DNA of 20,759 nt from a virus, in the IMG/VR virus record IMGVR_UViG_3300026382_000060, positions 1-20,759 of that record, one strand, 5' to 3'. Below, one piece after another: positions 1 to 20,759 of this stretch (the first letter of the stretch is position 1; each line of letters begins with the position of its first letter). The position numbers and the translations under genes were made by a program. The notes under the pieces are model-generated. The model had not been told where the DNA came from and made no database searches. It saw only the letters and a program-made list of their open reading frames with translations.

Positions 1-568
1 TATAAGACTTATCATCAAATCTTACCTTAATACATCTCCAACCTTGACACACATCAATAACTGTTCCTGCTCCATATTTGAAACTAAAAACTCTGTCATT
101 AAGTTCTAGATTACCTAAATAAAAATCATAGTCTAATTCTGATGGATTTACTGGTTGAAAAAATCTTTTTATTTCTGTCTTATACTCATACCCATTGTAA
201 TCAAAATATACAGACTTATCATAAAAATCAACTACAAAATTTACTTCATATTCAGCAGACACTTTACCTAGTCCATATTCCACCACATATACAGGTCTAT
301 TTTTTCTCATTATACCTTTAAGTAGTCCTACTTCCTGTTTTTCTTCTACCTCTTGTTCCTCATTGTCTTTCCAGCATAGGTAAAAAGAACCTATTTTACA
401 CTCTTTTGGATTAGTAGCACAAGTTAACAATTTTAAAGCTAAATCATCGGGTATAACTATTTCAAGTAGAGCAGGTTTCTTACCGCTCTTTGCTTTAATA
501 GATTTAATACTTCCTCCTACTACTAAAAATCTATTAAATTTTTCCTCACATATTGTTTTATTCTCCAT
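1..568 (-). CDS. Hypothetical protein with two Tudor/SH3-like repeats (3' end off the left edge)
   Basis: Reading from the ATG at 568 the frame is open for 189 codons and leaves the window, so the C-terminus is missing. A GGAAGAGGA-like ribosome site lies just upstream, and the start overlaps the preceding gene by 11 bases. The N-terminal ~80 residues match nothing I recognise. Residues ~92-131 and ~158-189 look like two copies of one small beta-barrel module, each with an aromatic-G-x-G-x-V core (YGLGKV, YGAGTV) followed by a V-x-F-D/DFYD strand. This resembles the Tudor-like/SH3 fold in UvrD C-termini and CarD-like proteins. Such modules bind nucleic acid or protein partners, so a DNA/RNA- or polymerase-related role is possible but inferred. 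The gene at 6224-6496 carries one related module. Confidence 0.75.
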   Translation of the reverse strand, partial: MENKTICEEKFNRFLVVGGSIKSIKAKSGKKPALLEIVIPDDLALKLLTCATNPKECKIGSFYLCWKDNEEQEVEEKQEVGLLKGIMRKNRPVYVVEYGLGKVSAEYEVNFVVDFYDKSVYFDYNGYEYKTEIKRFFQPVNPSELDYDFYLGNLELNDRVFSFKYGAGTVIDVCQGWRCIKVRFDDKSY

Positions 569-752
569 TTCCTCTTCCTTGTTTTCTACATTCATCATAT
601 TCTTCTTCGTACTCTTCTTTCAGAGAAAAATTTCTACATTCAATGGCTTCCTCCCCGCTGTAAATTTCTCTTCCATCGTAGCCACACTCCTCTCCCATCA
701 GCTGCTCACACCATTCACAATTAGCACATATATCTTTTTTGTGTTCTCTCAT
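558..752 (-). CDS. Small cysteine-rich protein, possible zinc binder
   Basis: A 64-residue acidic protein. The ATG at 752 follows AAAGGA with a 6-base gap, and its last codons overlap the next gene. Cysteines at C9, C12, C15, C23, C39 and C55 (C-x2-C-x2-C near the N-terminus) suggest metal binding, as in many small phage zinc-ribbon-like proteins. The C-terminal third is glutamate- and tyrosine-rich and probably helical. I do not recognise a named family. It lies in a leftward run of small genes typical of early or host-takeover regions. The 2577-2891 gene is also Cys-rich with similar spacing, though sequence similarity between them is weak. Confidence 0.7.
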   Translation of the reverse strand: MREHKKDICANCEWCEQLMGEECGYDGREIYSGEEAIECRNFSLKEEYEEEYDECRKQGRGNGE

Positions 753-762
753 TTATTATCCT

Positions 763-1487: not shown

Positions 1488-1513
1488 TATCATTCCTCCT
1501 TAAATAACCTTGT

Positions 1514-1556
1514 CACATTGAAATTATACCAATATAACCTTAAAATTACCTTAAAT
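1514..1556 (-). promoter_or_regulatory. TTTAAG-repeat promoter for the 1143-1487 gene
   Basis: On the minus strand TATAAT (1523-1528) is preceded by two TTTAAG hexamers 11 bases apart (one helical turn), the nearer ending 10 bases from TATAAT, and followed by TTCAATGTG. The 43-base stretch matches 2917-2959 at 33 positions by eye. There is no -35 consensus. It overlaps the stop codon of the upstream DUF488-like gene. Confidence 0.6.
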
Positions 1557-1949
1557 CAGTCTACCTTTGTGTCTAATTGTTTTATTTACACCAAACTCGC
1601 TAACTTCTATACCCAAGTTCTTCTCAAACCAATCAGCAACTAAGTGTCTATGACAAAAAGCTGATTTACCACAGTGACACATTAAGACAGGTTCTCTTCC
1701 ATCTGCTGCCTCTAAAATCCTTTTATAGATAGCAGAAGCATTTAATCTATCTAGTTTCTTGTTAAAAACTTTAATATACTTGTCTTCTGACACTACTTTT
1801 GACTTAAAAGCCTCTAATAATATATCATCAGGAGCTAATTCTAGTAAATTCATTCCTACTTGTACATATTTTGGGGTATACAGTGCTATGCTAACACTAA
1901 ATTCCCTGTCTGTTAAATTTCGTAGTTGATAAAAGTTACTTGTTTTCAT
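1551..1949 (-). CDS. DUF488-like protein
   Basis: A 132-residue protein starting at ATG 1949 inside the end of the preceding gene (14-base overlap), with GGAGATGGAAG upstream. Residues 91-108 (CHCG..., CHRHLVADWF) are the hallmark of DUF488: a Cys-x-Cys loop followed by CHR and a hydrophobic helix. The N-terminal YTPKY segment and the central helical region also fit. The family occurs in bacteria and phages, and its biochemical role is not settled. The three cysteines and histidines could bind a metal or act as nucleophiles. It is probably translated with the membrane protein upstream. Confidence 0.75.
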   Translation of the reverse strand: MKTSNFYQLRNLTDREFSVSIALYTPKYVQVGMNLLELAPDDILLEAFKSKVVSEDKYIKVFNKKLDRLNASAIYKRILEAADGREPVLMCHCGKSAFCHRHLVADWFEKNLGIEVSEFGVNKTIRHKGRLI

Positions 1950-2580
1950 CTTCCATCTCCTTAATTTTATAATCTTCTTCTCTTAAATTTTCTATCAACT
2001 TATAGTTAATTATAAATAAATATGTTATACAAACATCTACAACCACTTCTGCCCACATAACATAAATGATATTATTACTCAGCTTTGTAACTAGTAAAGC
2101 TAATACTCCTCCTATTATGGCTCCGTCAGCAAAAACGTGTACTCTATTAGTCTGATATTTGCTAATCAATAGTGGATTTTTTACTGTAACATAATTGGTA
2201 AAGAATATACTACCAACTACTGCCAGAGTTGTATCTATAATCGCTAAAAAAGATGTTATCAATGCTGTATAAAATCCATCCCAGAGATATAAAAACGGTG
2301 TTAGAGTAAATAGGGCTGTTACTATCAAACTCATTTTATGAACCTGCTGAATAGTTAATTTTTTAACTAAAAATTCAGTGTTTTTACTAACTAGTGTCCC
2401 TAAAAAAGCAAAGAATGGTATTAACCATATAATATCTTTGAATTCTACCCCTTTTAAATAAGTAACAATAGGAGTTACAAAAGAAATAGCAATCGCAAAA
2501 ATAAAATTCATAGAGAGTTTAAATCTCATATATGGGTCAGAAAAGGATAAAATCCTTTGTTTTGTGTCAAATAATTTCAT
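1936..2580 (-). CDS. Multi-pass inner-membrane protein, unknown function
   Basis: A 214-residue protein. The ATG at 2580 is chosen over an upstream in-frame one at 2604 because it makes an ATGA overlap with the preceding stop and lies 6 bases after GGGGGA. About six hydrophobic segments are visible (approximately residues 20-40, 47-62, 80-100, 105-132, 150-168, 175-196). The charged C-terminal tail is rich in E, K and D. The spacing recalls half of a transporter, but no signature motif stands out, so no function is assigned. It is sandwiched between a Cys-rich anchored protein and the DUF488-like gene, with overlaps on both sides. Confidence 0.75.
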   Translation of the reverse strand: MKLFDTKQRILSFSDPYMRFKLSMNFIFAIAISFVTPIVTYLKGVEFKDIIWLIPFFAFLGTLVSKNTEFLVKKLTIQQVHKMSLIVTALFTLTPFLYLWDGFYTALITSFLAIIDTTLAVVGSIFFTNYVTVKNPLLISKYQTNRVHVFADGAIIGGVLALLVTKLSNNIIYVMWAEVVVDVCITYLFIINYKLIENLREEDYKIKEMEDENK

Positions 2581-2891
2581 ATCCATTCCCCCATTAAGAA
2601 ACATAGCATAAATGAAACCAGCATTGTGGCACCAATTAAAAGAACTAGCTTTACATTGCTACTTAAATTAGGTTTTGTTCCTGTCTTTATTTGAGAATTA
2701 GCTACTCTTTCTTTATAGTAAACACATCTGTTGTCAGAATTCAACTTACTTGGATGAATTCGCTCACATTTACGTCTGTAAGACTTCCTACACGCAGAGG
2801 GATGATGACATATACCAACCCCAAAATTATTACTATAATACGCACAGTCCTCACAGAATACTTCTCTTTTGTATTCAGGTTTCTTCTTCAT
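2577..2891 (-). CDS. Cys-rich, C-terminally membrane-anchored small protein
   Basis: A 104-residue protein. The ATG at 2891 is preferred to the in-frame TTG at 2897 because AAAGGA lies 6 bases before the ATG and directly abuts the TTG. Residues 13-56 contain C13-x2-C16, C28, C34, C42 and C56 with nearby histidines, arranged like a small zinc-binding domain. A Lys/Arg-rich middle and a linker follow. Residues ~81-100 form one hydrophobic helix ending in GEWI, so it is probably tail-anchored with the zinc-like domain in the cytoplasm. It is the first gene after the promoter cluster at 2917-2996. Role unknown. Confidence 0.75.
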   Translation of the reverse strand: MKKKPEYKREVFCEDCAYYSNNFGVGICHHPSACRKSYRRKCERIHPSKLNSDNRCVYYKERVANSQIKTGTKPNLSSNVKLVLLIGATMLVSFMLCFLMGEWI

Positions 2892-2916
2892 TCTCAATCC
2901 TTTGTCTTACGATATT

Positions 2917-2959: not shown

Positions 2960-2967
2960 TGGATTTA

Positions 2968-3247: not shown

Positions 3248-3437
3248 TAAAAAATTCAAATACTTTTAAAATTAAAGAACCTGTGAACATCATTGATGTT
3301 ACATACATAAATCCCATAATAAATAACCTAATACTTACACCCGCTGTTTTATTAGTGAGGGTATATAATAAAATAAGATACAAAATTATAGTAATTACGG
3401 CAGTTGTTCCTGTGATTATAAAATCCATTTTACTCAT
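3234..3437 (-). CDS. Small two-TM membrane protein
   Basis: A 67-residue protein from ATG 3437 (AGGAGA upstream), overlapping the HNH gene by 8 bases. Two hydrophobic helices (residues ~5-27 and ~36-60) are separated by a short NKTAGVSIR turn, ending in a basic FFIDKR tail. Size and topology would suit a class II holin-like or antiholin-like protein, and the 3-TM holin is two genes upstream, but no family motif confirms this. It is the last gene of the long leftward operon before the sRNA promoter. Confidence 0.65.
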   Translation of the reverse strand: MSKMDFIITGTTAVITIILYLILLYTLTNKTAGVSIRLFIMGFMYVTSMMFTGSLILKVFEFFIDKR

Positions 3438-3786
3438 TTTCTAGTCTCCTGTGCCAAATCTTTACATTCTCTTCCTTAAAAACTCCCTCAAATAATAGTA
3501 ATGACTGTAATTTAAGTAAAAGTTCTAAAAAATTAGCAAAATCTTTACGTGTACATTTTTTCCTAAAACTACTTTTATAAGAAGTATGATACATTATATG
3601 ACAACTTTTACACAATGTAATCCCATTGTCTACTAAATACCTCTGGTCTTTGTAATAAGTGGCGTGATTAAGGTGGTGGGCATTCCTATTCTTCCTACTT
3701 CCACATATCTGACAAACTTTATCTCTTCTTATAACCTCTACCCGCCATTTACGATATTCTCTACTTGCTCTCCAAGATTTGCTCAT
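3430..3786 (-). CDS. HNH endonuclease
   Basis: A 118-residue protein from ATG 3786. C25-x2-C28 (CQIC) and C59-x2-C62 (CKSC) form the zinc-binding knuckles. The HNH core is H37/H38 (NAHHLNH), N54 and H63/H67 (CHIMYH). Ser/Arg/Lys-rich ends flank the core. HNH proteins in phages either assist HK97-type packaging next to the terminase genes or act as homing nucleases. Here the gene lies in the leftward operon right after the holin, about 3 kb from terS and on the opposite strand, so its role is open. Catalytic residues look complete. Confidence 0.88.
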   Translation of the reverse strand: MSKSWRASREYRKWRVEVIRRDKVCQICGSRKNRNAHHLNHATYYKDQRYLVDNGITLCKSCHIMYHTSYKSSFRKKCTRKDFANFLELLLKLQSLLLFEGVFKEENVKIWHRRLENE

Positions 3787-3805: not shown

Positions 3806-3829
3806 TGTATCTAGTGATTATTAGATACA
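3806..3829. other. Inverted repeat TGTATCTA-N8-TAGATACA over the holin stop codon
   Basis: A perfect 8-bp stem with an 8-base loop covering the last holin codons and its TAG stop. No T run follows on the minus strand, so it may block read-through ribosomes, protect the holin mRNA end or modulate translation of the HNH gene, whose AAAAGG ribosome site comes shortly after. Confidence 0.45.
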
Positions 3830-4218
3830 CCTTTTAATTTTTCGTATGTTCTCATACCACCCAAACCTAATATAGCCATAACCAAATTAAACAACATAGT
3901 CATATCAGTAGTTGGAGGGGTAATAGAAAGTCCTGCTAACTCACACCCCCAAGCTAGAAGAGGGGATATAATAAAGTTGTAGGCTAATCCCACTCCTCCT
4001 ACCCATAAAATGAAAGGTCTTGCCCCTGCCACAAACCAATTAGTTGATTTGGCTTCTTCTTTGTTTACTTCTATCTGACCTTTCATTAAACTATTTTCCA
4101 ACATTTTTAATTTTAAATCTACCTCAGCTAACTTAACAGGGTCTTTAATCTTTTCTCCTGTTATAGCCTCTCTAATATCCTTAATAGTACTACCTACATC
4201 AAATGGGAATATATTCAT
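3811..4218 (-). CDS. Holin of the 3-TM (GTA_holin_3TM-like) family
   Basis: A 135-residue protein from ATG 4218, in an ATGA overlap with the preceding stop and 6 bases after AAAGGG. The N-terminal ~55 residues are charged and helical. They are followed by the family signature of a Q-x-E-V-N-x-x-EA stretch (residues 48-56), a short linker and an aromatic-x-x-x-x-RP motif (R67, P68) opening the first hydrophobic helix (~68-90). A second hydrophobic stretch spans ~106-122. Such proteins form the inner-membrane pores that time lysis or release of phage-like particles. No endolysin was recognised beside it; the next upstream gene (4215-4640) is unassigned. Confidence 0.8.
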   Translation of the reverse strand: MNIFPFDVGSTIKDIREAITGEKIKDPVKLAEVDLKLKMLENSLMKGQIEVNKEEAKSTNWFVAGARPFILWVGGVGLAYNFIISPLLAWGCELAGLSITPPTTDMTMLFNLVMAILGLGGMRTYEKLKGVSNNH

Positions 4219-7212: not shown

Positions 7213-7234
7213 GGGAATACGGTTACTTTTGTAG

Positions 7235-7304: not shown

Positions 7305-8660
7305 ATGAGTATAGAAAAACAGTTACTACCAGATGATGTTATACAATATCAAAAGTTTAAAAAACGATTAAGGTATAAAAACATAATACCTATGGTAGGA
7401 TTTAAACCGCATAATAAACAAAAAGAAATAATTGAGACTATCCAGACAGGACACTTTGAAGTAATGTCTTTAACTTGTGGTAGACGATTTGGAAAAACAT
7501 TTGTTATTTCATTTATTGGAGGAGCAGAATTGGCAGTACCTTATGCTTCTATGTTACTTATGACCCCAACATTTTCCAACGCAAGTGTTATGTATCAGGA
7601 AATAGAAAAATATGTAAATAAGATAGGAATAAAAATAGTAAGAAAAGACACCAAAACCTTAACTTTTGAAACAGAGTTGGGTTCCACCATATTTGTTGTT
7701 ACACCTAAATCCGTTTCAAACGCATTAGGAAGAAAATTCAGTCTTGTTGTATTTGATGAAAGTCAAGATATACCGGATGTAGTAAATTTATGGGAAAATT
7801 ATATACAACCAGCCCAAGCTGACTACGGAAATGACGAGGAAACAGGAATGTCAGTATCTAAGACCATTTTTATAGGAACAGCAAGAGATGAAGAAAATGA
7901 TATGTACACAATAATTAAAAGAAGTAGACAGAAAAAGTATAGAGAGAAGTATATCAATTTTACTTACCCTACCTCGTCTAATCCTTATATACCTAAAAGT
8001 TATTTAAACAATAAAAAAGCAACTCTTGACCCAGTAACATTTGGAAGAGAATATGAGGGTAAATGGTCTAAATCAAGTAAAGAAATTATTTATTATTCTT
8101 TTGATAGGGATAAACACGTTAAATCAAAAGAATGGATTTTAAATAAAATAAACCCGGATGGGACTTTTATTTGCGGAATAGATGTAGGATATAGAGATAA
8201 TACAGCCTATTTAATTGCGTATGTAGAACCTTTTACAGGTATCATATATGTATTGGATGAGTACAAGGAAAGTAATAAAAGTTCAGGAGAGCATATAAAA
8301 AATTTTAGGGAAAAAGAAGCAAAATATGTAAATAATACACCTTTAAGATATTGTGACCCGTCCGCCGCTCAACTTATAGCAGATTGGATAACTGACTATG
8401 ATTATTTAGTTCAGGCAGGGTATAATGCTGTTAATGAGGGAGTAAAATTCGTTAATGGTAAATTTTCTCACGATAAATTATTTATAAGCGAAGAATGTGA
8501 AGAGCTTATAGAGCAGATTGAAGAGATGAGATGGAAAGATAATACAAACGATGTAGTAAGAACTAAAAAAAGAAGTCATTATGACTTAGGGTTTGCTGCC
8601 TTTCGGTACTTAATAGCAAGTTGGGAATTATCTAACACTTTTGAAATTACCAAAGTGTAG
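7305..8660 (+). CDS. terL: Terminase large subunit (packaging ATPase/nuclease)
   Basis: A 451-residue protein, the usual TerL size. The N-terminal ATPase has Walker A at residues 58-65 (CGRRFGKT) and Walker B at ~147-152 (LVVFDE), followed by a motif III-like FIGTARDE near 189-196. The C-terminal RNase H-like nuclease shows acidic positions at D293 (GIDVGYRD), D318 (VLDEY) and the late D in SHYDLGFAAF. It pumps DNA into the prohead through the portal and cuts it at the end. The RBS lies within repeat copy 1. No truncation or frameshift seen. Confidence 0.96.
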   Translation: MSIEKQLLPDDVIQYQKFKKRLRYKNIIPMVGFKPHNKQKEIIETIQTGHFEVMSLTCGRRFGKTFVISFIGGAELAVPYASMLLMTPTFSNASVMYQEIEKYVNKIGIKIVRKDTKTLTFETELGSTIFVVTPKSVSNALGRKFSLVVFDESQDIPDVVNLWENYIQPAQADYGNDEETGMSVSKTIFIGTARDEENDMYTIIKRSRQKKYREKYINFTYPTSSNPYIPKSYLNNKKATLDPVTFGREYEGKWSKSSKEIIYYSFDRDKHVKSKEWILNKINPDGTFICGIDVGYRDNTAYLIAYVEPFTGIIYVLDEYKESNKSSGEHIKNFREKEAKYVNNTPLRYCDPSAAQLIADWITDYDYLVQAGYNAVNEGVKFVNGKFSHDKLFISEECEELIEQIEEMRWKDNTNDVVRTKKRSHYDLGFAAFRYLIASWELSNTFEITKV

Positions 8661-8896: not shown

Positions 8897-10255
8897 ATGT
8901 TTGATTTTATAAAGAATATGTTCGGTTCTAATGACAAAGGAGATGGTATACCTCCTATGGAGTTTGAAACAGTAAAACAAATAATAGTTACCGACCAGCA
9001 GACTAAAAATACAAAAGCAGGTAATAAAATAGCAGAGGATTATAAAAGTGGTAACAACGCATTAGCCAAGTCGGCAGAAGAAAATTATCTACATACAGCT
9101 GATTTGGTTTACTCTTGTGTTGATTATATAGCAAAAGCAGCCTCACAGGCAATTCCTAAAATCTATATACTTGATAGAGATACAAATAAGAAAACAAGAG
9201 TTAAAGATAAGGCTTTACAAGCTTGGGAATTATCTCCAAATCCATTCTTTACTTGGGGAGAGTTAATAGAGTTGACAATACAAGGTTTAACACTATCAGG
9301 TACTTCATTTTTAACTTTTGAGAAAGTAAAAGGTAGATATGAGACTTGGTTTTTATCTACTCCTAGTAAAACTAAAATAGTTCCATCTGTTAAAGATTAC
9401 ATTGAGGGAGTAGTATTCGCAGACAATATCGCATATAAACCAGATGAGGTAATTATTTTAAGAAATCCGACCCTTAATAATGCTTATTATGGTGTACCTA
9501 CTGTAAGACCTTTATTTGACAATTTATTATTAGAAGCGGACGCACTAACTGCTTTAAAAGATTTCTATAAAGGGTCAAATCTTTTATCAGGTGTGATGGA
9601 AAGTGAGTTTGCTATGACAAATGAGCAAATAAACAGCCTTAGAACTCAATTTAAAGAACTTTTCGGTAGAAATGGGGCAGATAGAGGAGGAACAGCTGTT
9701 TTGCCTAATAAACTTAAATATAAGCCGATACAAGCTACTCCTGCGGACAGTAAACTTTTAGAAAGTATGGGTGTAACAGATGATAGAGTATATAAAGTAT
9801 TTAAACTAAATCAAACAGTAGTAGGAGGACACAGTAGTAATTTACCTACAAGAGATTTAATGAGAGTTACTTTCAATACAGCTGTAAGACCTTATTTATA
9901 TAAAATACAAGACCAAATTACACTGTTTTTACAACAGAACACTAAAAATAGCGATATAATTTTTGAATTTGACTTGGATAGAGTAGTAGAATTAGAAACA
10001 AGTCTTGATATAAAAGCTCAATCAGCTAAAACACTTATGGCAACAGGTGTAGCAAGTATGAATGAAGCGAGAGACTTGGTTGGATTACCACGTTTAGACA
10101 TAGAAAATGCTGATAAAAATCTATTAGCAGCTAGTATGTATGGTAGTGGAGCAAGATTTATTCAAGATGATACTCCTATAATACAAGGAGATGGAACACA
10201 AGACCCCGCTGGAAGTACAGACCCACAGGGCGGTAATCCAGACTTAAAAAACTAA
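8897..10255 (+). CDS. Portal protein (HK97 family)
   Basis: A 452-residue protein from ATG 8897 (AAAAGGA upstream). It fits the HK97-type portal: N-terminal VYSCVDYIAKAAS helix region, GTSFLTFEK segment, LRNPTLNNAYYGVPTVRPL and the FKLNQTVVGGHSSNLPTRDLMRVTFNTAVRPYLYKIQDQI region near the C-terminal third. The Gly/Gln/Asp-rich tail after ~430 is probably disordered. Twelve copies form the ring at one capsid vertex through which TerL loads DNA and to which the neck attaches. Order terL-portal-protease-capsid is canonical. Confidence 0.95.
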   Translation: MFDFIKNMFGSNDKGDGIPPMEFETVKQIIVTDQQTKNTKAGNKIAEDYKSGNNALAKSAEENYLHTADLVYSCVDYIAKAASQAIPKIYILDRDTNKKTRVKDKALQAWELSPNPFFTWGELIELTIQGLTLSGTSFLTFEKVKGRYETWFLSTPSKTKIVPSVKDYIEGVVFADNIAYKPDEVIILRNPTLNNAYYGVPTVRPLFDNLLLEADALTALKDFYKGSNLLSGVMESEFAMTNEQINSLRTQFKELFGRNGADRGGTAVLPNKLKYKPIQATPADSKLLESMGVTDDRVYKVFKLNQTVVGGHSSNLPTRDLMRVTFNTAVRPYLYKIQDQITLFLQQNTKNSDIIFEFDLDRVVELETSLDIKAQSAKTLMATGVASMNEARDLVGLPRLDIENADKNLLAASMYGSGARFIQDDTPIIQGDGTQDPAGSTDPQGGNPDLKN

Positions 10256-10267: not shown

Positions 10268-11215
10268 ATGAGTAAACAACAAAAGTTTAATATGACTTTG
10301 AAAGAAGTTACAACAACAGAAGAAGAGCAAGGTATAGTTATTATATCAGGGTATGCCAACAGATATAAAAATGAAGAGGGAGAAGTTGTAATTGATAGAA
10401 GTTGGGAGAGTGTTGCCCCGTTCTCTTATAATTTACTAGATTATTTAAAAAATCCAGTTGTATTATTTGACCACGATGTAACTAAACCTGTTGGTAAAGC
10501 ATTAGCCGTAGAGATGAAACCAGAGGGATTATATGTAAAAATAGCTGTTTATAGAGATGTAAATCCTGAAATATATGCTGCGGTTAAAAATGGTGTTTTA
10601 AGAACTCTAAGCATTGGATTTAGAGCAAAAGATTATAAAATAGTAGATGATGATATATGGGTTTGGACTGAGGTAGATTTATATGAGATTAGTATTGTTG
10701 CTATTCCAGATAATCAAGATAGTATTTTTACAGTTAGTGAAATTAAAAGTTGCGCTAATGGGGAGTGTGCCTTAGTCTCAAAAAGCATAGATACAAGTTT
10801 AATGTCTCCTGAGTTAAGAGAAGAAATATCAAAACAATTATGTACTATGAAGACAGAGATTAACGAGAGTAATTCTCAATCAAGTTCTGACGGGTCGGAA
10901 AATAATGATAATGGGTCGGAAAATAATGATAATGGGTCGGAAAATAATGATAATGAGTCAGGAAACGATGATAGTGGGTCAGGTGGTATACTTAATCTTT
11001 TAGCTACCGACACAGACAGTGTTACAACAAAAAATAATGAACCAGAACCAACTAATGAACCAGAACCGATATATAATTCAAATGAGATAACTTTGGAACA
11101 AGCTGTGGAAGTTTTGAGAGCGGAGGCTCCTAAATCCGAGAATTTTGATACTATTTTAAGTATTCAAGCAGAACTTACACAGACATTAAACCAAGTTATT
11201 TCAGAAAATATATAA
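10268..11215 (+). CDS. Prohead maturation protease (HK97 family) with long acidic repeat tail
   Basis: A 315-residue protein, longer than typical HK97 proteases. Residues 1-160 are the peptidase: H69 in VVLFDHD, S115 in LRTLSIGF and an acidic partner around 137-140 (EVDLYEISIVAIP) make the expected Ser-His-acid site. It cleaves the capsid delta domain and itself during head maturation. Residues ~200-240 form an Asn/Asp/Ser/Gly linker with GSENNDN repeated three times plus a diverged fourth copy. NEPEP occurs twice near 257-267. The final ~45 residues are helical and may act as a scaffold or targeting segment. The tail function is inferred. Confidence 0.93.
   Translation: MSKQQKFNMTLKEVTTTEEEQGIVIISGYANRYKNEEGEVVIDRSWESVAPFSYNLLDYLKNPVVLFDHDVTKPVGKALAVEMKPEGLYVKIAVYRDVNPEIYAAVKNGVLRTLSIGFRAKDYKIVDDDIWVWTEVDLYEISIVAIPDNQDSIFTVSEIKSCANGECALVSKSIDTSLMSPELREEISKQLCTMKTEINESNSQSSSDGSENNDNGSENNDNGSENNDNESGNDDSGSGGILNLLATDTDSVTTKNNEPEPTNEPEPIYNSNEITLEQAVEVLRAEAPKSENFDTILSIQAELTQTLNQVISENI
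10892..10975 (+). repeat. 21-bp tandem repeat within the protease gene
   Basis: Three near-identical 21-base units (GGGTCGGAAAATAATGATAA plus T) at 10892, 10913 and 10934, followed by a diverged fourth (10955-10975). Each encodes the 7-residue GSENNDN. The length is divisible by 3, so copy changes keep the frame. A 15-base direct repeat (TAATGAACCAGAACC, twice) lies about 60 bases on. Confidence 0.9.
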
Positions 11216-11227: not shown

Positions 11228-12466
11228 ATGAGTTTAGAGTTAATCAAAGAACTTAAAGATAGAGTGGAAAAGGCAGAGGAAAAAGCAAAGACAGCAGAAG
11301 ATGTTATTAAACAAGCAAAAAAAGAATATGAAGATAACATAGCAGACATTAAAAAACAATTTGAAGAAAGAAAAGCTGCTTACGCAACAGGTGCTGTTGT
11401 TACTGACCCTGACGCTGTATCAAGAGCTAAAAAAGATGGAGCAAATCTTTATTTAAAATCAGTTATATTAGGTAAACCTGTAACAGAATTTAAAGAATTT
11501 AAACAAATAGCGGCTGTTGTAGAAAAAGCTATTAAACCAGACGATGTTGAAAGTTGGTTAGGAGAAGAATTTAGTAGCCAAATTTTAGATAAATTAAATC
11601 CTGAATTAAAAGTTGAGGGACTTTTCCAAGCATTAAAATTCCCTAACAATGTATCACAATTCAGCTTCCCAGCTTTAATTGATGATAGTCAAGCATATTT
11701 AATCGCACCAGATGAAGACGCAATTAAATCAGCTATCGGTGCTTCAAAAATTACTTATGAAACACAAAGACTAAAAACTTTAATTGGTGTAACAGACCAA
11801 GCAAATCAAGAAACTGTAACAGCTCTTGTTGACGTAGTAAAACAAAGATTAGTTACTTCATTAGCAAAAGGTTCAGAAAAAGCAATCGTACTAGGTAAAG
11901 ATAAAGACGCTGGATATAACAGTAATGATGTAAGAGAAGCGTTTAAAGGTTTAATGAAACTAGTAAGAGACGCAGGTCAAACACACGATAACGGAGGACA
12001 TCCTATTACAGCAAAAGCTGTGAATGAAGCAAGAAAGTTAATGGGTATGTACGGTATGGAAGTTACTGATTTAGCAATTATCTGTGATTTCAAAACTGCT
12101 TATGATATGCTGGAATTAGATGAAGTTGTAACTATTGAAAAATTCGGTAGTGCTGCTACAATCGTTAAAGGAGAAATCGGTAAACTTTGGGGTATGCCTA
12201 TTATTGTTTCTGGTTATATGTCAAACGGAAATGACGGTAGATTTACAACAGATGGAGAAGATAAAGAAAGTTCTGACGCAACACATAGAGCATTACTTGT
12301 TGTTAATAGAGCATACTTTGGAGTAGCAGATAGAGGACAAATTGGTATAGAAGTTCAAAGAAATGCTGTAAGTTCTACTAACCTTTATGTAGGATTTAGA
12401 GATGTGGATTTCAAAAATATGGCAGTTGACGCTACACCAGCCGCAGCAGTTGTAAATATAGACTAA
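11228..12466 (+). CDS. Major capsid protein (HK97 fold)
   Basis: A 412-residue protein from ATG 11228 (AAAAGGA upstream). Residues 1-50 are a charged coiled coil typical of the delta/scaffold domain removed by the protease. A mature-protein start soon after is likely, perhaps around AAYATGAVV (~49-58). The rest has HK97 capsid character: E-loop and P-domain segments (SFPALIDDSQAYLIAPDEDAI, QRLKTLIGVTDQANQETVTALVDVVKQRLVTSLAKGSEKAIV) and the A-domain end (IGIEVQRNAVSSTNLYVGFRDVDFKNMAVDAT). It follows the protease as expected. Codon choice is smoother than in neighbours, fitting high expression, and a hairpin covers its stop. Confidence 0.93.
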   Translation: MSLELIKELKDRVEKAEEKAKTAEDVIKQAKKEYEDNIADIKKQFEERKAAYATGAVVTDPDAVSRAKKDGANLYLKSVILGKPVTEFKEFKQIAAVVEKAIKPDDVESWLGEEFSSQILDKLNPELKVEGLFQALKFPNNVSQFSFPALIDDSQAYLIAPDEDAIKSAIGASKITYETQRLKTLIGVTDQANQETVTALVDVVKQRLVTSLAKGSEKAIVLGKDKDAGYNSNDVREAFKGLMKLVRDAGQTHDNGGHPITAKAVNEARKLMGMYGMEVTDLAIICDFKTAYDMLELDEVVTIEKFGSAATIVKGEIGKLWGMPIIVSGYMSNGNDGRFTTDGEDKESSDATHRALLVVNRAYFGVADRGQIGIEVQRNAVSSTNLYVGFRDVDFKNMAVDATPAAAVVNID

Positions 12467-12811: not shown

Positions 12812-13636
12812 ATGGCATACTTAGTTGAATTACTGAAACAGAGATTGGAGATAGAAGAGAATGATACTAGTAAAGATTACTTGCTAAGTGAGGCGATAGC
12901 TTTTAGCAAGGGTGTTTTACTTAATTATTGTAGTATTCACTCTTTTAATCAGATTACAAAAGAAAAAGAGTTCGCTCCTGTGAATAACAAATTTTATTTT
13001 CAATTATTTCCTGTTCTTTCACTAGATAAGATTGAGATAGGTGGAGTTGATTTAGTGAAAGATAATAAAATGGAATGGTTAGAACAGAGAGTAGCTACTA
13101 ACTACCCAACAGGAGAGTTTACAAATGTTACACTTAAAGATAAGATAACTGCGGAAGTCTTTAAGTTTAAATGTAAAGGAGAAAACTCAGACGGTAATAA
13201 CGAATGGGAAGTATTAGGAAATAAGAGAGGTAATATGAGTAAAGCCGTATCTAATAGTGAATATGATACTGATTTTTTTACTTTAACTATTAAGGATGAT
13301 AGCGATAATAAGTTTCAAGAGGGAGATTTGTTATTCTTTATGGCAAGAAAAGAGGGTAATTATTTTAATGATTTTTATATAAACCCAAGATTAAGCTCAT
13401 CATATACATACAAAGTAACTTATACTTATGGATACGCTTTTGATGAGATGTTACCATCAGATTTAAAGGCTTTACTACTTAATTTGGCAAATTATTACTT
13501 TACAAAAGCTAACTCTCAGACAGACGGTATAACAAGTCTTGGAAATCAAATAGGAGATGATTTGAAACAAGTTCCTACTAGTTTTCCTGTATCTATTCAA
13601 ACAGCATTAGATTTACACAAAAAGATGGTGCTGTAA
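12812..13636 (+). CDS. Head-tail adaptor / connector (gp6-like)
   Basis: A 274-residue protein. Ends resemble the gp6/gp15-type adaptor: an N-terminal helix pair (LLKQRLEIEENDTSKDYLLSEAIAFSKGVLLNYC) and a C-terminal helix (PSDLKALLLNLANYYFTKANS) with the loop SLGNQIGDDLKQVPTSFPVSIQTALDLHKK. The middle (~80-200) is a beta-rich insertion that makes this longer than the usual 100-200 residues. The adaptor ring binds beneath the portal. Position after capsid and before the neck gene supports it. The insertion may decorate the neck. Confidence 0.7.
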   Translation: MAYLVELLKQRLEIEENDTSKDYLLSEAIAFSKGVLLNYCSIHSFNQITKEKEFAPVNNKFYFQLFPVLSLDKIEIGGVDLVKDNKMEWLEQRVATNYPTGEFTNVTLKDKITAEVFKFKCKGENSDGNNEWEVLGNKRGNMSKAVSNSEYDTDFFTLTIKDDSDNKFQEGDLLFFMARKEGNYFNDFYINPRLSSSYTYKVTYTYGYAFDEMLPSDLKALLLNLANYYFTKANSQTDGITSLGNQIGDDLKQVPTSFPVSIQTALDLHKKMVL

Positions 13637-14143: not shown

Positions 14144-14554
14144 ATGCGTAGGGAGATAGTAGATAATATAGTTAAGGTATTGATAGACAGTGGTAAATTT
14201 AAAAAAGTGTATAAAAATATACTACCCAACATAGAAAAAATAGCTGTTTTCCCCACAGCCGCTGTTGTGTACGAGAGGGAAAAGGTTATGCGGGAGTTTA
14301 TAAGTGGTAAGACTATGCGATATGAAGCAGATATAATCATACCTATTGTAAATAAACACAAAAACTCCAATTTAGATGATGTATTAACTGATTTAATTGA
14401 TACAATACAAGATGGTATTTTATCTGATAAATGGATTATATGTAATACAGTAGATTGCTGGGTAGAAGAGACAGAAAGAGACGGAGGGACTTTATATCCC
14501 CTGGCAATAGCACAGGTGGTTGTTAAAGTCCGATATATTTATAAAATCAAATAA
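14144..14554 (+). CDS. Tail terminator-like protein
   Basis: A 136-residue protein from ATG 14144 with AAAAGGG 5 bases upstream, two bases after the previous stop. N-terminal IVDNIVKVLIDSGKFKKVYKN and the beta-strand pattern (AVFPTAAVVYEREKV, YEADIIIPIVNKH, LAIAQVVVKVRYIYKIK) match the mixed alpha/beta fold of lambda gpU-like terminators, which cap the tail tube and join it to the neck. Gene order (before the major tail protein) agrees. Confidence 0.65.
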   Translation: MRREIVDNIVKVLIDSGKFKKVYKNILPNIEKIAVFPTAAVVYEREKVMREFISGKTMRYEADIIIPIVNKHKNSNLDDVLTDLIDTIQDGILSDKWIICNTVDCWVEETERDGGTLYPLAIAQVVVKVRYIYKIK

Positions 14555-14566: not shown

Positions 14567-15790
14567 ATGGCAACATATAGAACATCAAGCACGGTTTTTT
14601 TAGTAATAAAAGAAGCTGAGTTTAATAAAGGTGGAACTTTTACTGAAACTGATACAGTGTCATCAACAGCAGATAGTTCATTAAAAGCAGAAGTGAAATC
14701 AATAGAGAGAAAAATTAGAACAAATTCATTTATTGGGTGTCCAACGGTAGCAGGAACTGAAACTGCGTCTGGTAGTTTAGGACTGGAAATCATCCCAGCA
14801 ACAGGAAACGAGTTAGTAGGAGATGTAGTTTATGAAGTAGCACTAGGTCAGAAAGTAGTTAATGGAGCTAAAATTGATTACTGGAAAGAAACAGGAAGTG
14901 ATTTCGCATTTGCTGCGGACGGAAACAAAATCACAACAACAAATACAAGTTTAGAGTATATTAAATCTGGGGATACTATTGTGATTAGTGGGTCTGAAAA
15001 AAATGACGGAACATATACTGTAACAGATTATGTAAACGAACACGAGATACACACAGAGGAAGCTCTTACAGATGAAGACGCTGGAAATACTGTAACTTGT
15101 GAAGATACAACTTGTGATAGAATTTATCCTATGGATAGTGGAGACGCTAACTACTTTAAATTATCAAAACCTTGTGGAGATGAGTACTCTTTATCGGTTA
15201 AAAAGATAGTAGGTTGTGATAACACAGATAGTCAAACACTATATGTAACAGGAATAGTGCCGTCAAGTATTAAACTTAATTTCCCAACAGGAGATGTATG
15301 TAGTGCTACATTTGATTTAGGTGGAGCAGGATTTACTACAAATACAGGAGATGATGTACCAGCTGTTAAATGTTTAGATACTACTCCGTATGTAGGTAAA
15401 TTAGCTAAATTTTCAGTAGATAAAAAAACTTATGAAAGTAAAAATTTAGAGTTAACTATCTCAAATACTATTACTGATTTAGAAACGATTACATCAACTG
15501 GTATATCAGCTAAAATTACAACTAAAAAAGAAATCAAAGGGTCTATTTCTGTACTTTTTGAAGATTACTCAGAGTTAGACAGAATGAAGAAAAATGAAGA
15601 CGCAATGGTGTATTTAAGATTAGAAGCAGACGGAGCAAAATTTGCTATTTATTTACCAAGAGTTAGATATAGCTCAGTAGATATTTCTGACGACGGTGGT
15701 ATCTTAATGAATAAAATAGAATTCATTGGGTATGTAAATGATAAAATAACAGGAGAAGCATTTTTATTAGCTCACAAAGGGCTTAATTAA
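14567..15790 (+). CDS. Major tail (tube) protein with an inserted beta domain
   Basis: A 407-residue protein from ATG 14567 (AAAGGA upstream). The N-terminal SIERKIRTNSFIGCPTVAGTETASGSLGLEIIP segment is typical of tail-tube proteins of long-tailed phages. The C-terminal half has repeated beta strands (KNLELTISNTITDLETITSTGISAKITTKKEIKG, LRLEADGAKFAIYLPRVRYSS). Residues ~112-177 (SGDTIVISGSEKNDGTYTVTD...) look like a separate small beta domain of the kind phages insert in tail proteins for surface display. A single tube protein with no sheath gene nearby favours a siphovirus. The stop lies in a weak hairpin followed by a pyrimidine tract. Confidence 0.85.
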   Translation: MATYRTSSTVFLVIKEAEFNKGGTFTETDTVSSTADSSLKAEVKSIERKIRTNSFIGCPTVAGTETASGSLGLEIIPATGNELVGDVVYEVALGQKVVNGAKIDYWKETGSDFAFAADGNKITTTNTSLEYIKSGDTIVISGSEKNDGTYTVTDYVNEHEIHTEEALTDEDAGNTVTCEDTTCDRIYPMDSGDANYFKLSKPCGDEYSLSVKKIVGCDNTDSQTLYVTGIVPSSIKLNFPTGDVCSATFDLGGAGFTTNTGDDVPAVKCLDTTPYVGKLAKFSVDKKTYESKNLELTISNTITDLETITSTGISAKITTKKEIKGSISVLFEDYSELDRMKKNEDAMVYLRLEADGAKFAIYLPRVRYSSVDISDDGGILMNKIEFIGYVNDKITGEAFLLAHKGLN

Positions 15791-15820: not shown

Positions 15821-15824
15821 TATT

Positions 15825-15860
15825 AGTGTCAAAAACCATAATCATTGTTTTGTAATTTTT
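15825..15860 (+). repeat. Intergenic repeat, copy 3 (major tail gene - nrdB cassette gap)
   Basis: 36 bases identical to copy 1 (from AGTGTCAAAAACC through TTGTAATTTTT). The sequence then diverges. Copies 1 and 2 go on to TAGAATTTAG, whereas copy 3 is followed at once by the TTTAAG-type promoter at 15870-15903. Confidence 0.9.
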
Positions 15861-15869
15861 ATTTTTAGA

Positions 15870-15934: not shown

Positions 15935-16099
15935 ATGAAGAGGCAGACAAATGTCAAGTTCTTTATAGGAACTAGCGAGTGGAATAAATTTAAAAATATA
16001 GCCAAGCAGAGGAAAATCCCGTCGTGGTTATTGGTTAGGAATTTAGTGATTGAGTTTATAAATAAGGAGAAAAACAAAAATGAAAAAGAAACTATTTAA
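15935..16099 (+). CDS. Small ribbon-helix-helix-like protein
   Basis: A 54-residue protein. ATG 15935 is chosen (AAGGAA upstream) over an in-frame ATG 60 bases earlier that overlaps the promoter and lacks a ribosome site. The layout fits an Arc/MetJ-like ribbon-helix-helix fold: short beta strand (NVKFFIG), helix (SEWNKFKNIAKQRK), turn (IPSW), helix (LLVRNLVIEFINKEK) and a charged tail. It is likely a DNA-binding repressor, possibly of its own cassette. It overlaps nrdB by 20 bases and contains the nrdB AAGGAG ribosome site. Confidence 0.65.
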   Translation: MKRQTNVKFFIGTSEWNKFKNIAKQRKIPSWLLVRNLVIEFINKEKNKNEKETI

Positions 16100-17123
16100 T
16101 TATGATTGCCCAAGTACAAAAACCACTTCAACAACAGGTATAATTAACGGATGTAGTGATGGTATTATCAATCTGAACAATCTTACATACAAGTGGGCGT
16201 ACAATTTATGGGAGCAAATGTTAGCTAATACTTGGTTTCCAAGAGAAGTTAATTTAACTGAGGACGCAAAACAATACAGAGAGTTGTTACCAGCAGAGCA
16301 GAGATTATTTGACAAGGTTCTTTCTCAACTAATTTTTATGGATAGTATACAGACAAATAATTCTGTGGATAATGTTAATCCTTTTATTACAGCACCAGAA
16401 GTTAATATGTGTATTATCAGACAGAGCTATGAAGAGGCATTACACTCACAAAGTTATGCCGTAATGGTGGATAGTATTTCTTTAAGTACAGCAGCTATTT
16501 ATGATATGTGGAAAAAGGATACACAACTAAAAAATAAGAACGAGTATATAGGTAATATGTATGAAAAATATGCTAATAAAGCAATAGCAGGGGATTTTGC
16601 TTCACAATTAAAAATGATTGTAGCTAATCAATGTTTAGAGGGGATTTACTTTTATAGTGGGTTCGCAGGAATATATGTTTTAGCCAGAGCAGGTAAGATG
16701 TTAGGGTCAGCTCAGATGATTAGATTTATTCAAAGAGATGAAATTACACATTTACAACTTTATGCTAATATATTTCAAGAGATGGTAAAAGAAAATCCTG
16801 AAAAACTTACTCCTCAGTTAAAAGAAGAGATAAGAGATATGTTTAGACAGGCTTATGAGTTAGAAAGAGATTGGGGGTATTATATTACTAACGAAGAAAT
16901 ACTTGGGTTTAGTAATAAATTGATAGATAATTTTATTAAATACTTAACAAACCAAAGATTGAACGCTATTGGATTAGAGGTATTGTTCCCAGAGGTGCCT
17001 ATCAATAAAAATCCTATCTCTTGGTTTAATGATTTTAGTAGTTTTAACAATCAGAGAACTAACTTTTTTGAGGGTAATGTAGCTAATTACACAAAAGGGG
17101 GAGTTAGTTTTGACGATTTCTAA
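16080..17123 (+). CDS. nrdB: Ribonucleotide reductase class I small subunit
   Basis: A 347-residue protein of the NrdB/R2 family, which houses the diiron-tyrosyl radical that starts ribonucleotide reduction in partnership with NrdA. Metal ligands are all present: D88 (MDSIQ), E119 and H122 (EEALHSQSY), E187 (CLEGIYFY), E221 and H224 (QRDEITH). The radical tyrosine is Y126 at the E. coli Y122 position, so it is Tyr-type and not the Phe-type class Ic. W52 (TWFP) and the C-terminal Y337 and FDDF tail needed for NrdA docking are intact. No nrdA is in the window, so it may pair with a host or distant phage NrdA. The location between tail genes is unusual. Confidence 0.96.
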   Translation: MKKKLFNYDCPSTKTTSTTGIINGCSDGIINLNNLTYKWAYNLWEQMLANTWFPREVNLTEDAKQYRELLPAEQRLFDKVLSQLIFMDSIQTNNSVDNVNPFITAPEVNMCIIRQSYEEALHSQSYAVMVDSISLSTAAIYDMWKKDTQLKNKNEYIGNMYEKYANKAIAGDFASQLKMIVANQCLEGIYFYSGFAGIYVLARAGKMLGSAQMIRFIQRDEITHLQLYANIFQEMVKENPEKLTPQLKEEIRDMFRQAYELERDWGYYITNEEILGFSNKLIDNFIKYLTNQRLNAIGLEVLFPEVPINKNPISWFNDFSSFNNQRTNFFEGNVANYTKGGVSFDDF

Positions 17124-17828: not shown

Positions 17829-18507
17829 TGTTTCAAAATGGGAATATATAGAACATTATAATCTGCCTACTTCTGATAAAGTATCCAAAAATACCACTTT
17901 TTATATAGCCAAATATAGAGCATTATCACATAAAGAACTCCAATCTTCTGTTGAATACTTAAACACGTTTGATTATAACAATCTTTTTTACATCAATGTA
18001 GTAGAGGAGGCTTTAATCTCTTTATATGATAGTACAGGGAGTAAAGTCCATCTAGATAATTTACCTATTCCTATTATTTTACAGATTGGGGAGAGCATTC
18101 TCCATAAATCCATCTTTACACGAGAAGAAAGAGAAAAGTTAGATGTGAGTTTAAATGTTGTTATGTCCGAGGATATGAAAGCAAACACCTGGACTTGTGA
18201 AGTGTGTAAGAAAAGACGGTTAGACAGGGCAAGGAACTGTGGATTTAGAAATGAATTAGATAAGAATGAAGATTTTAGAGTAATAGTTAATGGTGTAAGT
18301 TATACTTCCTGTCCGATATACTTTGTAGATAAGAATTTAGTTTCTAGTGCTTTTTTATCTTATAATCTTTATCAAGAACATTTATACCCTGATGAGGGTG
18401 GTTTTTATGACCAGACTAACTTTTTTGTAGAGGCTTCTCTAAAAGTTAGTATGCTAGTCAGTGAAAAAGAGAAAAAGGATTTAGAGAAACTTAAAAACCA
18501 AAAATAA
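17806..18507 (+). CDS. Second tail assembly chaperone-like protein with Cys motif
   Basis: A 233-residue protein from ATG 17806 (AAAGG 8 bases upstream), directly before the tape measure. The N-terminal half is helical. Residues ~126-142 read TWTCEVCKKRRLDRARNCGF (C-x2-C ... C) and a further Cys is at VSYTSCPIYF, suggesting a zinc or structural cysteine cluster. I recall this C-x2-C ... C pattern from second chaperone genes of other phages with Gram-negative hosts. It probably cooperates with the first chaperone in tape measure handling. Assignment is from position plus motif. Confidence 0.65.
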   Translation: MKNLEKNNVSKWEYIEHYNLPTSDKVSKNTTFYIAKYRALSHKELQSSVEYLNTFDYNNLFYINVVEEALISLYDSTGSKVHLDNLPIPIILQIGESILHKSIFTREEREKLDVSLNVVMSEDMKANTWTCEVCKKRRLDRARNCGFRNELDKNEDFRVIVNGVSYTSCPIYFVDKNLVSSAFLSYNLYQEHLYPDEGGFYDQTNFFVEASLKVSMLVSEKEKKDLEKLKNQK

Positions 18508-18516
18508 GGACTAATT

Positions 18517-20759
18517 ATGGCTAAAAAAGAGACTTTTAGTGTCAATATAAATTTTTTACAGGATAGTATCAATCAATTTAAAGAAAAATTAAAATCAACA
18601 GAAGCGGAACTTAAACAGGTTAATTCTGCTGCCTCAGCTGTGGAATATGGTCAAAAGTTTAAAAATCAAATTACAGCTACTATTGAAAAATTAAAAGAGC
18701 AAAAAGCAGCAGTTGATGACATAAGTAAGGCTGTTAAAATTGTTGGAAGCGAACAAGATTACAAAAAAGTGGAAAGAGATTTACTAAAACTACACTCTAC
18801 TTTGGGTAAGTCAAGTAAAGATTTAGAGAGATATAGACAGGCTTTATTACAAGTTCCTAATGGGGCAAGTTCTATGGCAAAGCAAATAATTGCGGAGTTT
18901 AAGGTTCTAGGTGTAGAAGCGAGTAAGATAAAGGAATATAAAGGATATTTATCTAAATTAGTAAAAGAGGATGACATCGGAAGACTTGTGGCTTTTAATT
19001 CTGATTTAAGCAAAACTCTATCTCTACTTAGACAATTAGATAAAGCCGAAAAGAGACTTAGTTTAGTTTCTCCTAAATTAGAAGTGGATAAGAGTATAAT
19101 AGAGGGAAATAAAGCAAATATAGGTAAAACTCGTTCGTTTATTACACAGGATGTAGAAACTCCTAATTTGGTTCATAATAAGACTATTACAGATAGAAAT
19201 TTAATGAATATAAGTGATGAACTAGCAACTCTTAAAAAGAGACAGGCTTATCTTACTAAAATAGAAAAACTAGAACAAGATATTACACAGATAGTGGATG
19301 GTAGAAGAGCAAGAGGACATTCTAATGCTATACAGAAAGTGAAAAATGATTTACTCTCAAAAGAGAGAGTAGACGTACTTAAAATAGATAAAACTTTAAG
19401 TGAACAAGAAAACACAATAAAAAATATAATTACTTTTGAGAGAGAAAAAGCAAAGATTTTAAAAGATATTACTAAACTAGAAAAGTTAGAGAATGAATTG
19501 GTTTCAGATACATTAAAAACCAAATTCAAAGCGGATATTGAAAAAGCAAAAAGTCAAATTAAAAGCAGTAAAGCTATTCAGGATTTAGAAAAAGAAAAAA
19601 TAGCACTTGCCGAGATTTCTGCTAAATACAAAATTACTAATAAGTATAGTGAGTTGTCACATAAGTATTTGAATAAGATAGCTACATTGGAAGCAGAGAT
19701 AAATAAAATAAAAGATGACAGTTTAAAGAACGAGAAATTAAGTGAACTAAGTTCTTTAAAGGTTGCCGCTGCTAAACTAAAAGACAAACAGGCGTCTATC
19801 CAGATAAACGAAACATACCAAAATATAAATAAAAGTGTAAAAGATAGATTAAAGCTAGAAAGGGAAGTGGAAACTGAACTAGCCAAAATGGAAAAAAGAC
19901 AAACTACCTATTTGGAAAAAGCGGAGATGTTAAGTAAAATAGGAAGAGCTAAAATAGATAATTTTGCTTCTGTTTATGGAACTAAAAACACAGAGGATGT
20001 AAATAAGAGATTTAATACAAAAGTAGCAGACTTTTATGACGCTAAAACAATAAAGGAACAAGAAGAAGCACTAAAAGAGTTGATGTTATACTCTAAACAG
20101 TTACAGCAAGAGTTTAGTAAAATAAAATTAAGTACGGATATAGATAAAGAGTTCTCAAAACTTGAAAAGGAAATTGAGAACACAAATATGTTACTTGATA
20201 CAATGGCAGCTAAATTAAATAAACCAGAATTACAACAAATGAAATTAACAGTGCCAAATAAAGAAAATATATCAACTTCATCTATAAAAGATACTAGACA
20301 GGGATTAAAAGAAGTTGAGAAAAAAGTAGAGCTATATAGACAAGTGGAAGCGGAGATTGCTAAAATAGATAACGAAACAGCAAAATACGCAGCTCATCTA
20401 GGGTTAAGTACGGATAAGATAGAGGAGCAAAAACAAGCACTAAAACAAGTTCAAAGTGAAATTTTACAAGCTGGTAATAACTACCAAAAAATAGTAGCAA
20501 GTGTTAGACAAGCTAAAACCGAAGCACAGCAATTTATGAATAAACTAAAACCATCAAAAGATTTAGCAGCGGATTATGATAGATTTTTGAATGGTATTAA
20601 CCAAAAAATGGCTACTTTACAAGCAAGAATACAATCAAGAATGGCAACAGGAGACACAACTGCTATTAAAGAAGCCGAAAAGTTATTACAAGAATATCAA
20701 AAACTTAAAGTAGAGGCAGAAAATGCTAAAAAAAGTTTATATAGTGCTATCAATACATC
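18517..20759 (+). CDS. Tape measure protein (N-terminal part; right end off window)
   Basis: ATG 18517 follows AAGGA with a 6-base gap. The frame runs without a stop for 747 codons to the window edge, so the C-terminus, including any lytic domain, is missing. It is an almost unbroken series of charged coiled coils (repeating KLEKLENEL, AKSQIKSSKAI, LKEVEKKVELYRQVEAEI), poor in Cys, with no hydrophobic segment yet. It sets tail length and is ejected with the DNA. Position after the chaperones is standard. Reverse-strand reading frames in this stretch are shadows. Confidence 0.9.
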   Translation, partial: MAKKETFSVNINFLQDSINQFKEKLKSTEAELKQVNSAASAVEYGQKFKNQITATIEKLKEQKAAVDDISKAVKIVGSEQDYKKVERDLLKLHSTLGKSSKDLERYRQALLQVPNGASSMAKQIIAEFKVLGVEASKIKEYKGYLSKLVKEDDIGRLVAFNSDLSKTLSLLRQLDKAEKRLSLVSPKLEVDKSIIEGNKANIGKTRSFITQDVETPNLVHNKTITDRNLMNISDELATLKKRQAYLTKIEKLEQDITQIVDGRRARGHSNAIQKVKNDLLSKERVDVLKIDKTLSEQENTIKNIITFEREKAKILKDITKLEKLENELVSDTLKTKFKADIEKAKSQIKSSKAIQDLEKEKIALAEISAKYKITNKYSELSHKYLNKIATLEAEINKIKDDSLKNEKLSELSSLKVAAAKLKDKQASIQINETYQNINKSVKDRLKLEREVETELAKMEKRQTTYLEKAEMLSKIGRAKIDNFASVYGTKNTEDVNKRFNTKVADFYDAKTIKEQEEALKELMLYSKQLQQEFSKIKLSTDIDKEFSKLEKEIENTNMLLDTMAAKLNKPELQQMKLTVPNKENISTSSIKDTRQGLKEVEKKVELYRQVEAEIAKIDNETAKYAAHLGLSTDKIEEQKQALKQVQSEILQAGNNYQKIVASVRQAKTEAQQFMNKLKPSKDLAADYDRFLNGINQKMATLQARIQSRMATGDTTAIKEAEKLLQEYQKLKVEAENAKKSLYSAINT

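What the first reader, a model, noticed from the sequence alone, without database searches (positions are those of the whole stretch)
1..20759. GATC, CATG and TCGA appear to be completely absent
Reading every line I found no GATC, no CATG and no TCGA in 20.8 kb. With this base composition each would be expected roughly 50 times if bases were independent (TCGA fewer because CG is uncommon here). Other four-base palindromes such as AGCT, CTAG, GTAC, ACGT and CCGG do occur, and GAATTC is present at 2737, 7013 and 15720. Such specific loss is the classical mark of long exposure to restriction enzymes that cut those sequences. Helicobacter and relatives are known for CATG- and GATC-type systems, which fits the guessed host.
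Basis: seen in the sequence. Interest (0 to 1): 0.8.

Follow-up and report, generated by a model that had tools for sequence, protein, structure and literature searches.

The report
Phage DNA purged of restriction sites
This piece of a bacterial virus's genome has lost every copy of at least eleven short DNA words (and all but one copy of a twelfth) of the kind that bacterial restriction enzymes cut, and a close relative still carries several of them, so the loss looks like recent evolution to survive in a host armed with many such enzymes.

Summary
Confirmed and extended. GATC, CATG and TCGA occur 0 times in 20,759 nt. Except for GGCC/GGNCC (weaker), none is absent in 1,000 synonymous-codon shuffles of the 31 ORFs; a second-order Markov null gives no eliminated words.

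The window is a fragment of a tailed phage (terminase, portal, protease, capsid, tail genes, NrdB) with no modification or anti-restriction gene recognised in it. A relative (L001, ~76% nt identity) shares the GATC, CATG, GGCC, ATTAAT, AATATT and GCATC absences but keeps TGCA (21), CTNNAG (43), CCTTC (16), GANTC (11) and GGTGA (10): 0 of 100 such aligned sites survive in the window, against 40 of 152 control sites. A more distant relative (L003, 47.7 kb) lacks a different, equally long list.

Best explanation: selection by many Type II restriction systems of the host, with a repertoire that turns over fast. The kind is known; its breadth and tempo are unusual. Host and enzymes remain unidentified.

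The parts
1..20759 (.). Whole window: 0 copies of GATC, CATG, TCGA, TGCA, CTNNAG, ATTAAT, AATATT, GGNCC, GGCC, CCTTC, GGTGA, GCATC (both strands)
   Evidence: Direct counts and nulls:
10955..10959 (.). The only GANTC (GAGTC) in the window, in the 3' part of the protease gene, in a low-complexity GATAAT/GAGTCA stretch
   Evidence: expected about 58
7305..8660 (+). Terminase large subunit (locates the window in a tailed phage)
   Evidence: PHROG 2, E 1.8e-28
8897..10255 (+). Portal protein
   Evidence: PHROG 12, E 9.5e-44
10268..11215 (+). Head maturation protease
   Evidence: PHROG 80, E 2.1e-30
11228..12466 (+). Major capsid protein
   Evidence: PHROG 10, E 3.9e-7; tblastn to T5-like capsid proteins
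12812..13636 (+). Probable head-tail adaptor (weak)
   Evidence: PHROG 442, E 5e-5
14144..14554 (+). Tail terminator
   Evidence: PHROG 3907, E 4e-6
14567..15790 (+). Tail protein (PHROG: minor tail; by its position probably major tail)
   Evidence: PHROG 290, E 8.7e-18; position is inference
16080..17123 (+). NrdB, class I ribonucleotide reductase small subunit
   Evidence: NF007184, 450 bits against cut-off 310; PF00268
18517..20757 (+). Long coiled-coil-like ORF running off the end, probable tape measure protein
   Evidence: position and composition only; no PHROG hit; inference
3811..4218 (-). Holin
   Evidence: PHROG 3427, E 5e-24
3430..3786 (-). HNH endonuclease
   Evidence: PHROG 119, PF01844

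Best explanation
The window is part of a tailed phage, probably a lytic one, that has been selected, base change by base change, to contain no recognition sites for about a dozen Type II restriction enzymes carried by the bacterial population it infects. Unmodified incoming phage DNA would be cut at any of these words, so variants that lost a site survived; about half of the losses seen against a relative are synonymous. The host repertoire changes over time: some words were already gone in the common ancestor with the relative L001, and others (TGCA, CTNNAG, CCTTC, GGTGA, GANTC, TCGA) were eliminated in the window's lineage after the two split. Shown: the absences, their statistical strength, their lineage specificity and the escape signature in codon choice. 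Inferred: that the agents are restriction enzymes, that they belong to the host, that they are Type II, and that the phage is lytic.
For: (1) Twelve non-overlapping words have 0 or 1 copy with 13-91 expected under a second-order Markov model; ten Markov-simulated sequences gave none. (2) In 1,000 synonymous shuffles none of GATC, CATG, TCGA, TGCA, CTNNAG, ATTAAT, AATATT, CCTTC, GGTGA or GCATC was absent, and GANTC never fell to 1; GGCC and GGNCC are weaker (2 and 24 of 1,000). (3) Codon context: Ala is GCA 0 of 78 times after a T-ending codon but 152 of 295 times otherwise; Asp is GAT 0 of 21 times before C but 284 of 363 otherwise; His is CAT 0 of 10 before G but 33 of 58 otherwise; no internal Met ATG is preceded by C (0 of 120). 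(4) One-step neighbours of TGCA are in excess: TGCT 199 (142 expected), TGCC 67 (42), TGCG 43 (30); CANNAG 216 (140). (5) All ten hexamer classes of CTNNAG are absent while CTNAG (29) and CTNNNAG (71) are present; CTNNAG is the specificity of M.Eco57I (PMC3874165) and a fully methylated m6A motif in Mycoplasma dispar (PMC6385981). (6) L001 carries 100 aligned sites of TGCA, CTNNAG, CCTTC, GGTGA, GANTC and TCGA, none kept in the window, against 40 of 152 control sites kept (Fisher p 1.7e-10). (7) Relatives show other lists: L003 lacks GATC, GGCC, GGNNCC, GAWTC, ACAGG, CCTGA, CAGGC, RCATGY and GTYRAC over 47.7 kb. (8) Elimination chiefly of orthodox Type II sites, more in non-temperate phages, is the published pattern (PMC6286503). 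(9) No DNA methyltransferase or anti-restriction gene was recognised in the window.
Against: No host genome and no restriction gene has been tied to this phage. The specificities are read off the phage itself, so they partly define themselves. CTNNAG is documented as a methyltransferase specificity; I found no single endonuclease described that cuts all CTNNAG. Only 20.8 kb of a probably larger genome is seen, so methyltransferase or anti-restriction genes elsewhere are possible. Word selection used thresholds; GGCC/GGNCC and the words of 5-8 expected copies (GCNNGC, CAATTG, CATATG) are weaker. The control words were chosen by me, and sites in L001 are not fully independent of each other.
Confidence: 0.88

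Rival explanations
1. General avoidance of palindromes or a mutational or codon bias in an A+T-rich phage genome, without restriction.
For: Several present palindromes are mildly low (CTAG 42 against 56, ACGT 11 against 19 in synonymous shuffles); low GC reduces GC-rich words.
Against: Codon-preserving shuffles keep composition and protein yet never give zero for ten of the words. AGCT, GTAC, AATT and TTAA are near normal, while asymmetric words CCTTC, GGTGA and GCATC are gone. L001 has the same GC (31%) but TGCA and CTNNAG near expectation.
Confidence: 0.03
2. The words were lost to other sequence-specific agents: solitary methyltransferases with methyl-directed restriction or mismatch-repair nicking (GATC), CRISPR motifs, or other nucleases.
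For: GATC is absent or rare in almost every relative examined, whatever else they avoid, so GATC may have a separate, older cause.
Against: These agents do not explain a dozen unrelated words, including gapped and asymmetric ones, or the different list in L003.
Confidence: 0.07
3. An artefact: library preparation by restriction digestion or assembly breakage that selects contigs without sites.
For: Contigs between cut sites would by construction lack the cut words.
Against: No usual protocol cuts with twelve enzymes. L001, from another IMG/VR data set, shares half of the list. A chance fragment of 20.8 kb free of about 50 expected sites for each of several words, with synonymous codons rearranged around them, cannot be made by choosing fragments.
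Confidence: 0.01

Closest known systems
Restriction-site avoidance in phages (Rusinov et al. 2018, PMC6286503)
   Same: Elimination of Type II sites in a dsDNA phage; [quoted passage not shown]
   Different: About a dozen words are gone at once from one 20.8-kb stretch; the paper reports 3.9% of its genome-site pairs as eliminated. Half of the losses here can be placed against a relative at ~76% nucleotide identity.
GATC-free Staphylococcus phage K and low-site phages T7, SPO1, Fnu1 (compared here)
   Same: Complete or near-complete loss of GATC, GGCC or a few other words.
   Different: By the same criterion these 20.8-kb stretches yield 1 to 7 words (Campylobacter phage NCTC12673 and phiPSA1: 0), against 12 in the window and 14 in L003 (overlapping fragments inflate some lists).
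Helicobacter pylori restriction-modification repertoire (PMC3936762)
   Same: GATC, CATG, TCGA, GANTC, ATTAAT and CCTTC are all methylated in strain 26695; M.Hpy66VIII targets TGCA (PMC10423294).
   Different: Other 26695 motifs (GAAGA, GCAG, CCTC) are not avoided in the window, and H. pylori phage KHP30 keeps GATC and CATG. It shows that one bacterium can hold such a repertoire, not that it is the host.

Membership tests
Type II restriction-site avoidance by a phage | Word absent or strongly depleted against composition and codon-preserving expectation | tested here: met
Type II restriction-site avoidance by a phage | Depletion specific to particular words, with similar words at normal frequency | tested here: met
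   AGCT, GTAC, TCNGA, GTNNAC, GAAGA, CCTC, GCAG normal or nearly so; CTNNNAG 71 and CTNAG 29 against CTNNAG 0
Type II restriction-site avoidance by a phage | Words correspond to known Type II recognition sequences | tested here: met
   GATC, CATG, TCGA, GANTC, ATTAAT, CCTTC in PMC3936762, TGCA in PMC10423294, CTNNAG as M.Eco57I in PMC3874165. AATATT, GGNCC/GGCC, GGTGA, GCATC from own knowledge (SspI, Sau96I/HaeIII, HphI, SfaNI); not looked up here
Type II restriction-site avoidance by a phage | Host carries restriction enzymes of these specificities | not testable with these tools
   Host unknown; only a 57%-identical terminase in a Desulfurellales MAG contig
Type II restriction-site avoidance by a phage | No other protection such as modified DNA or own methyltransferases | tested here: inconclusive
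   None recognised in the window's ORFs and no PF01555 in nine related records, but the genome is incomplete and other families were not searched in the relatives
Helicobacter phage | Gene relationship to Helicobacter phages | tested here: not met
   No nucleotide match in 50,697 phage records; protein matches are to T5-like and other phages at under 30% identity for terminase, capsid and portal
T5-like phages (Demerecviridae) | Head and packaging proteins of the T5 type | tested here: inconclusive
   Terminase and capsid best match phages of the T5-like group at 24-28% identity, but the portal matches other phages at about 22%; no tree was built

The most novel reading that the evidence does not exclude
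An uncultured phage lineage lives in hosts whose Type II repertoires are so large and change so quickly that each phage lineage is repeatedly purged of a dozen or more words, so that a phage genome alone records its hosts' restriction repertoire through time. One eliminated word, CTNNAG, would point to an endonuclease cutting a fully degenerate CTNNAG, an activity for which I found only methyltransferases described.
Probability: 0.35. Interest if true: 0.65.

Novelty: new member of a known kind. Interest (0 to 1): 0.5.

Why it matters
Site avoidance is known, but usually for one or a few words. Here a dozen words are gone in one short contig, and a relative at about 76% nucleotide identity preserves the before-state for half of them, so the order and rate of loss, and its cost in codon choice and amino acid changes, can be measured. 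It also offers a way to infer the restriction repertoire, and perhaps the identity, of an uncultured host from phage sequence alone.

Tried and rejected
Host identification: megablast against phages found nothing. The single genome-contig scan gave one close relative (5.2-kb contig in a Desulfurellales MAG, 57% identity in terminase) and three at 20-26%. In the 25 genomes of that MAG's phylum the portal matched only that MAG, and the window's NrdB matched none (no positive control in that set), so the MAG contig may be a binned free phage and I do not assign the host. Methyltransferase families PF01555 and PF02086 are common in those genomes but neither was found in G001 itself, so this says little. 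Helicobacter: not supported, as shown. NrdB as host marker: closest solved chains and the NF007184 family give no resolution. An early list from a looser scan contained overlapping fragments (AGANTC, GAWTC, GANTCC, GAKMTC), which I merged into GANTC and GATC. My accession for a vent phage (NC_024365) turned out to be Pseudomonas phage phiPSA1 and was kept as a plain control; T5 itself was not in the collection under the accession tried.
Full report
Observation. GATC, CATG and TCGA have zero copies in the 20,759-nt window. The absence is not explained by composition (Markov expectations 13 to 53) or by protein and codon content: in 1,000 shuffles that permute synonymous codons within each of 31 ORFs the lowest counts were 22, 10 and 9.

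Extent. I scanned 5,512 patterns (palindromes with and without gaps, asymmetric words on both strands) and merged overlapping ones. Twelve remain: CTNNAG 0 of 91, GANTC 1 of 58, GATC 0 of 53, TGCA 0 of 48, CATG 0 of 38, AATATT 0 of 27, CCTTC 0 of 24, ATTAAT 0 of 20, GGNCC 0 of 17, GGTGA 0 of 16, GCATC (listed as GATGC) 0 of 13, TCGA 0 of 13 (second-order Markov expectation). Ten Markov-simulated sequences had none. With synonymous shuffles ten of these never reached zero and GANTC never fell to one; GGNCC did so in 24 and GGCC in 2 of 1,000, so that member is weaker. At most one of eleven words was absent in any one shuffle. Weaker candidates are GCNNGC, CAATTG and CATATG. By the same criterion other 20.8-kb phage stretches gave 0 to 7 words (KHP30 4, T7 5, phage K 3, Campylobacter NCTC12673 0, Lactococcus c2 4, phiPSA1 0, Fnu1 7, SPO1 1), some of them overlapping fragments; only the relative L003, with 14 partly overlapping words, matches the window.

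How the words were lost. Codon choice is rearranged around the words: GCA is used for alanine in 152 of 295 cases but 0 of 78 after a T; GAT for aspartate in 284 of 363 but 0 of 21 before a C; CAT for histidine in 33 of 58 but 0 of 10 before a G; and none of 120 internal ATG codons follows a C. Words one step from TGCA are in excess (TGCT 199 against 142). CTNNAG is lost as a degenerate whole: all ten hexamer classes are absent, while CTNNNAG (71) and CTNAG (29, itself reduced) remain.

Relatives. The window is part of a tailed phage: terminase, portal, protease, capsid, tail terminator, tail protein, holin, HNH endonuclease and NrdB are recognised. No relative is in the phage collection at nucleotide level. 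IMG/VR holds one close relative, L001 (8.8 kb, 76% nt and 76% aa identity over ten genes), and several at about 50-56% identity in terminase or portal. L001 shares zero counts of GATC, CATG, GGCC, GGNCC, ATTAAT, AATATT and GCATC (the last with only 6 expected) but has TGCA 21 of 27, CTNNAG 43 of 37, CCTTC 16 of 9, GGTGA 10 of 8, GANTC 11 of 23 and TCGA 4 of 5. In codon alignments none of 100 such L001 sites is kept in the window, against 40 of 152 sites of six control words (Fisher p 1.7e-10); about half of the changes are synonymous. The outgroups have TGCA and CTNNAG near expectation, so these were lost in the window's line. L003's 47.7-kb record lacks a different list throughout: GATC, GGCC, GGNNCC, GAWTC, ACAGG, CCTGA, CAGGC, RCATGY, GTYRAC. 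GATC is absent or rare in nearly all members of the group examined; the Desulfurellales contig L014 lacks GATC and CATG (about 10 expected each).

Interpretation. Elimination of whole recognition sequences, mostly of Type II, is the known signature of restriction pressure, described for a minority of phage genomes and mainly for orthodox Type II sites (PMC6286503). Six of the words are methylated in H. pylori 26695 (PMC3936762), TGCA is targeted by M.Hpy66VIII in other H. pylori (PMC10423294), and CTNNAG is the specificity of M.Eco57I (PMC3874165) and an m6A motif of Mycoplasma dispar (PMC6385981). The asymmetric words CCTTC, GGTGA and GCATC match HpyAV, HphI and SfaNI (HpyAV from PMC3936762; the other two from my own knowledge). 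The most likely mechanism is therefore stepwise escape from a large and changing set of host Type II systems, by a phage that, in this fragment, shows no protection of its own.

Host. Unknown. The Helicobacter guess is not supported: KHP30 keeps GATC and CATG, H. pylori words such as GAAGA, GCAG and CCTC are not avoided here, and the phage shows no gene kinship with Helicobacter phages. The only cellular lead is a Desulfurellales MAG contig whose sample code occurs in a deep-sea vent survey (PMC9793634); the contig may be a binned free phage, and the class I NrdB of the window was not matched in that phylum.

Verdict. A real, very strong case of a known phenomenon, unusual in the number of words and in having a relative that shows half of them before loss.

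Noticed in passing
window 7203-7277, 8670-8744, 15792-15866: An intergenic repeat with an almost identical core (GTGTCAAAAACCATAATCATTGTTTTGTAATTTTT) lies before terminase, before portal and before the small ORF and NrdB gene; possibly a repeated promoter or terminator of late genes.
   Followed up: no
window 16080-17123: A class I ribonucleotide reductase small subunit sits inside the tail module; its closest viral relative by scan is a 185-kb IMG/VR contig (L013, 69% identity), and its family is NF007184.
   Followed up: partly
L027-L029 (record G028, relative L003): GAAC is nearly absent (16 of 238 expected) and CAGG occurs only after G or C, never after A or T: avoidance of asymmetric words with flanking-base dependence.
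   Followed up: partly
window 1551-1949 (-): A DUF488 protein, weakly similar to the PADLOC candidate PDC-M45C.
   Followed up: no
window 1936-2604 (-): A protein of about 222 aa with several hydrophobic stretches and no family match, overlapping the DUF488 gene.
   Followed up: no
L025 (Fusobacterium phage Fnu1, 20,759 nt): Lacks GATC (0 of 34), TCGA (0 of 5) and GGTGA (0 of 14) and nearly lacks CATG (3 of 36), a list overlapping that of the window.
   Followed up: no
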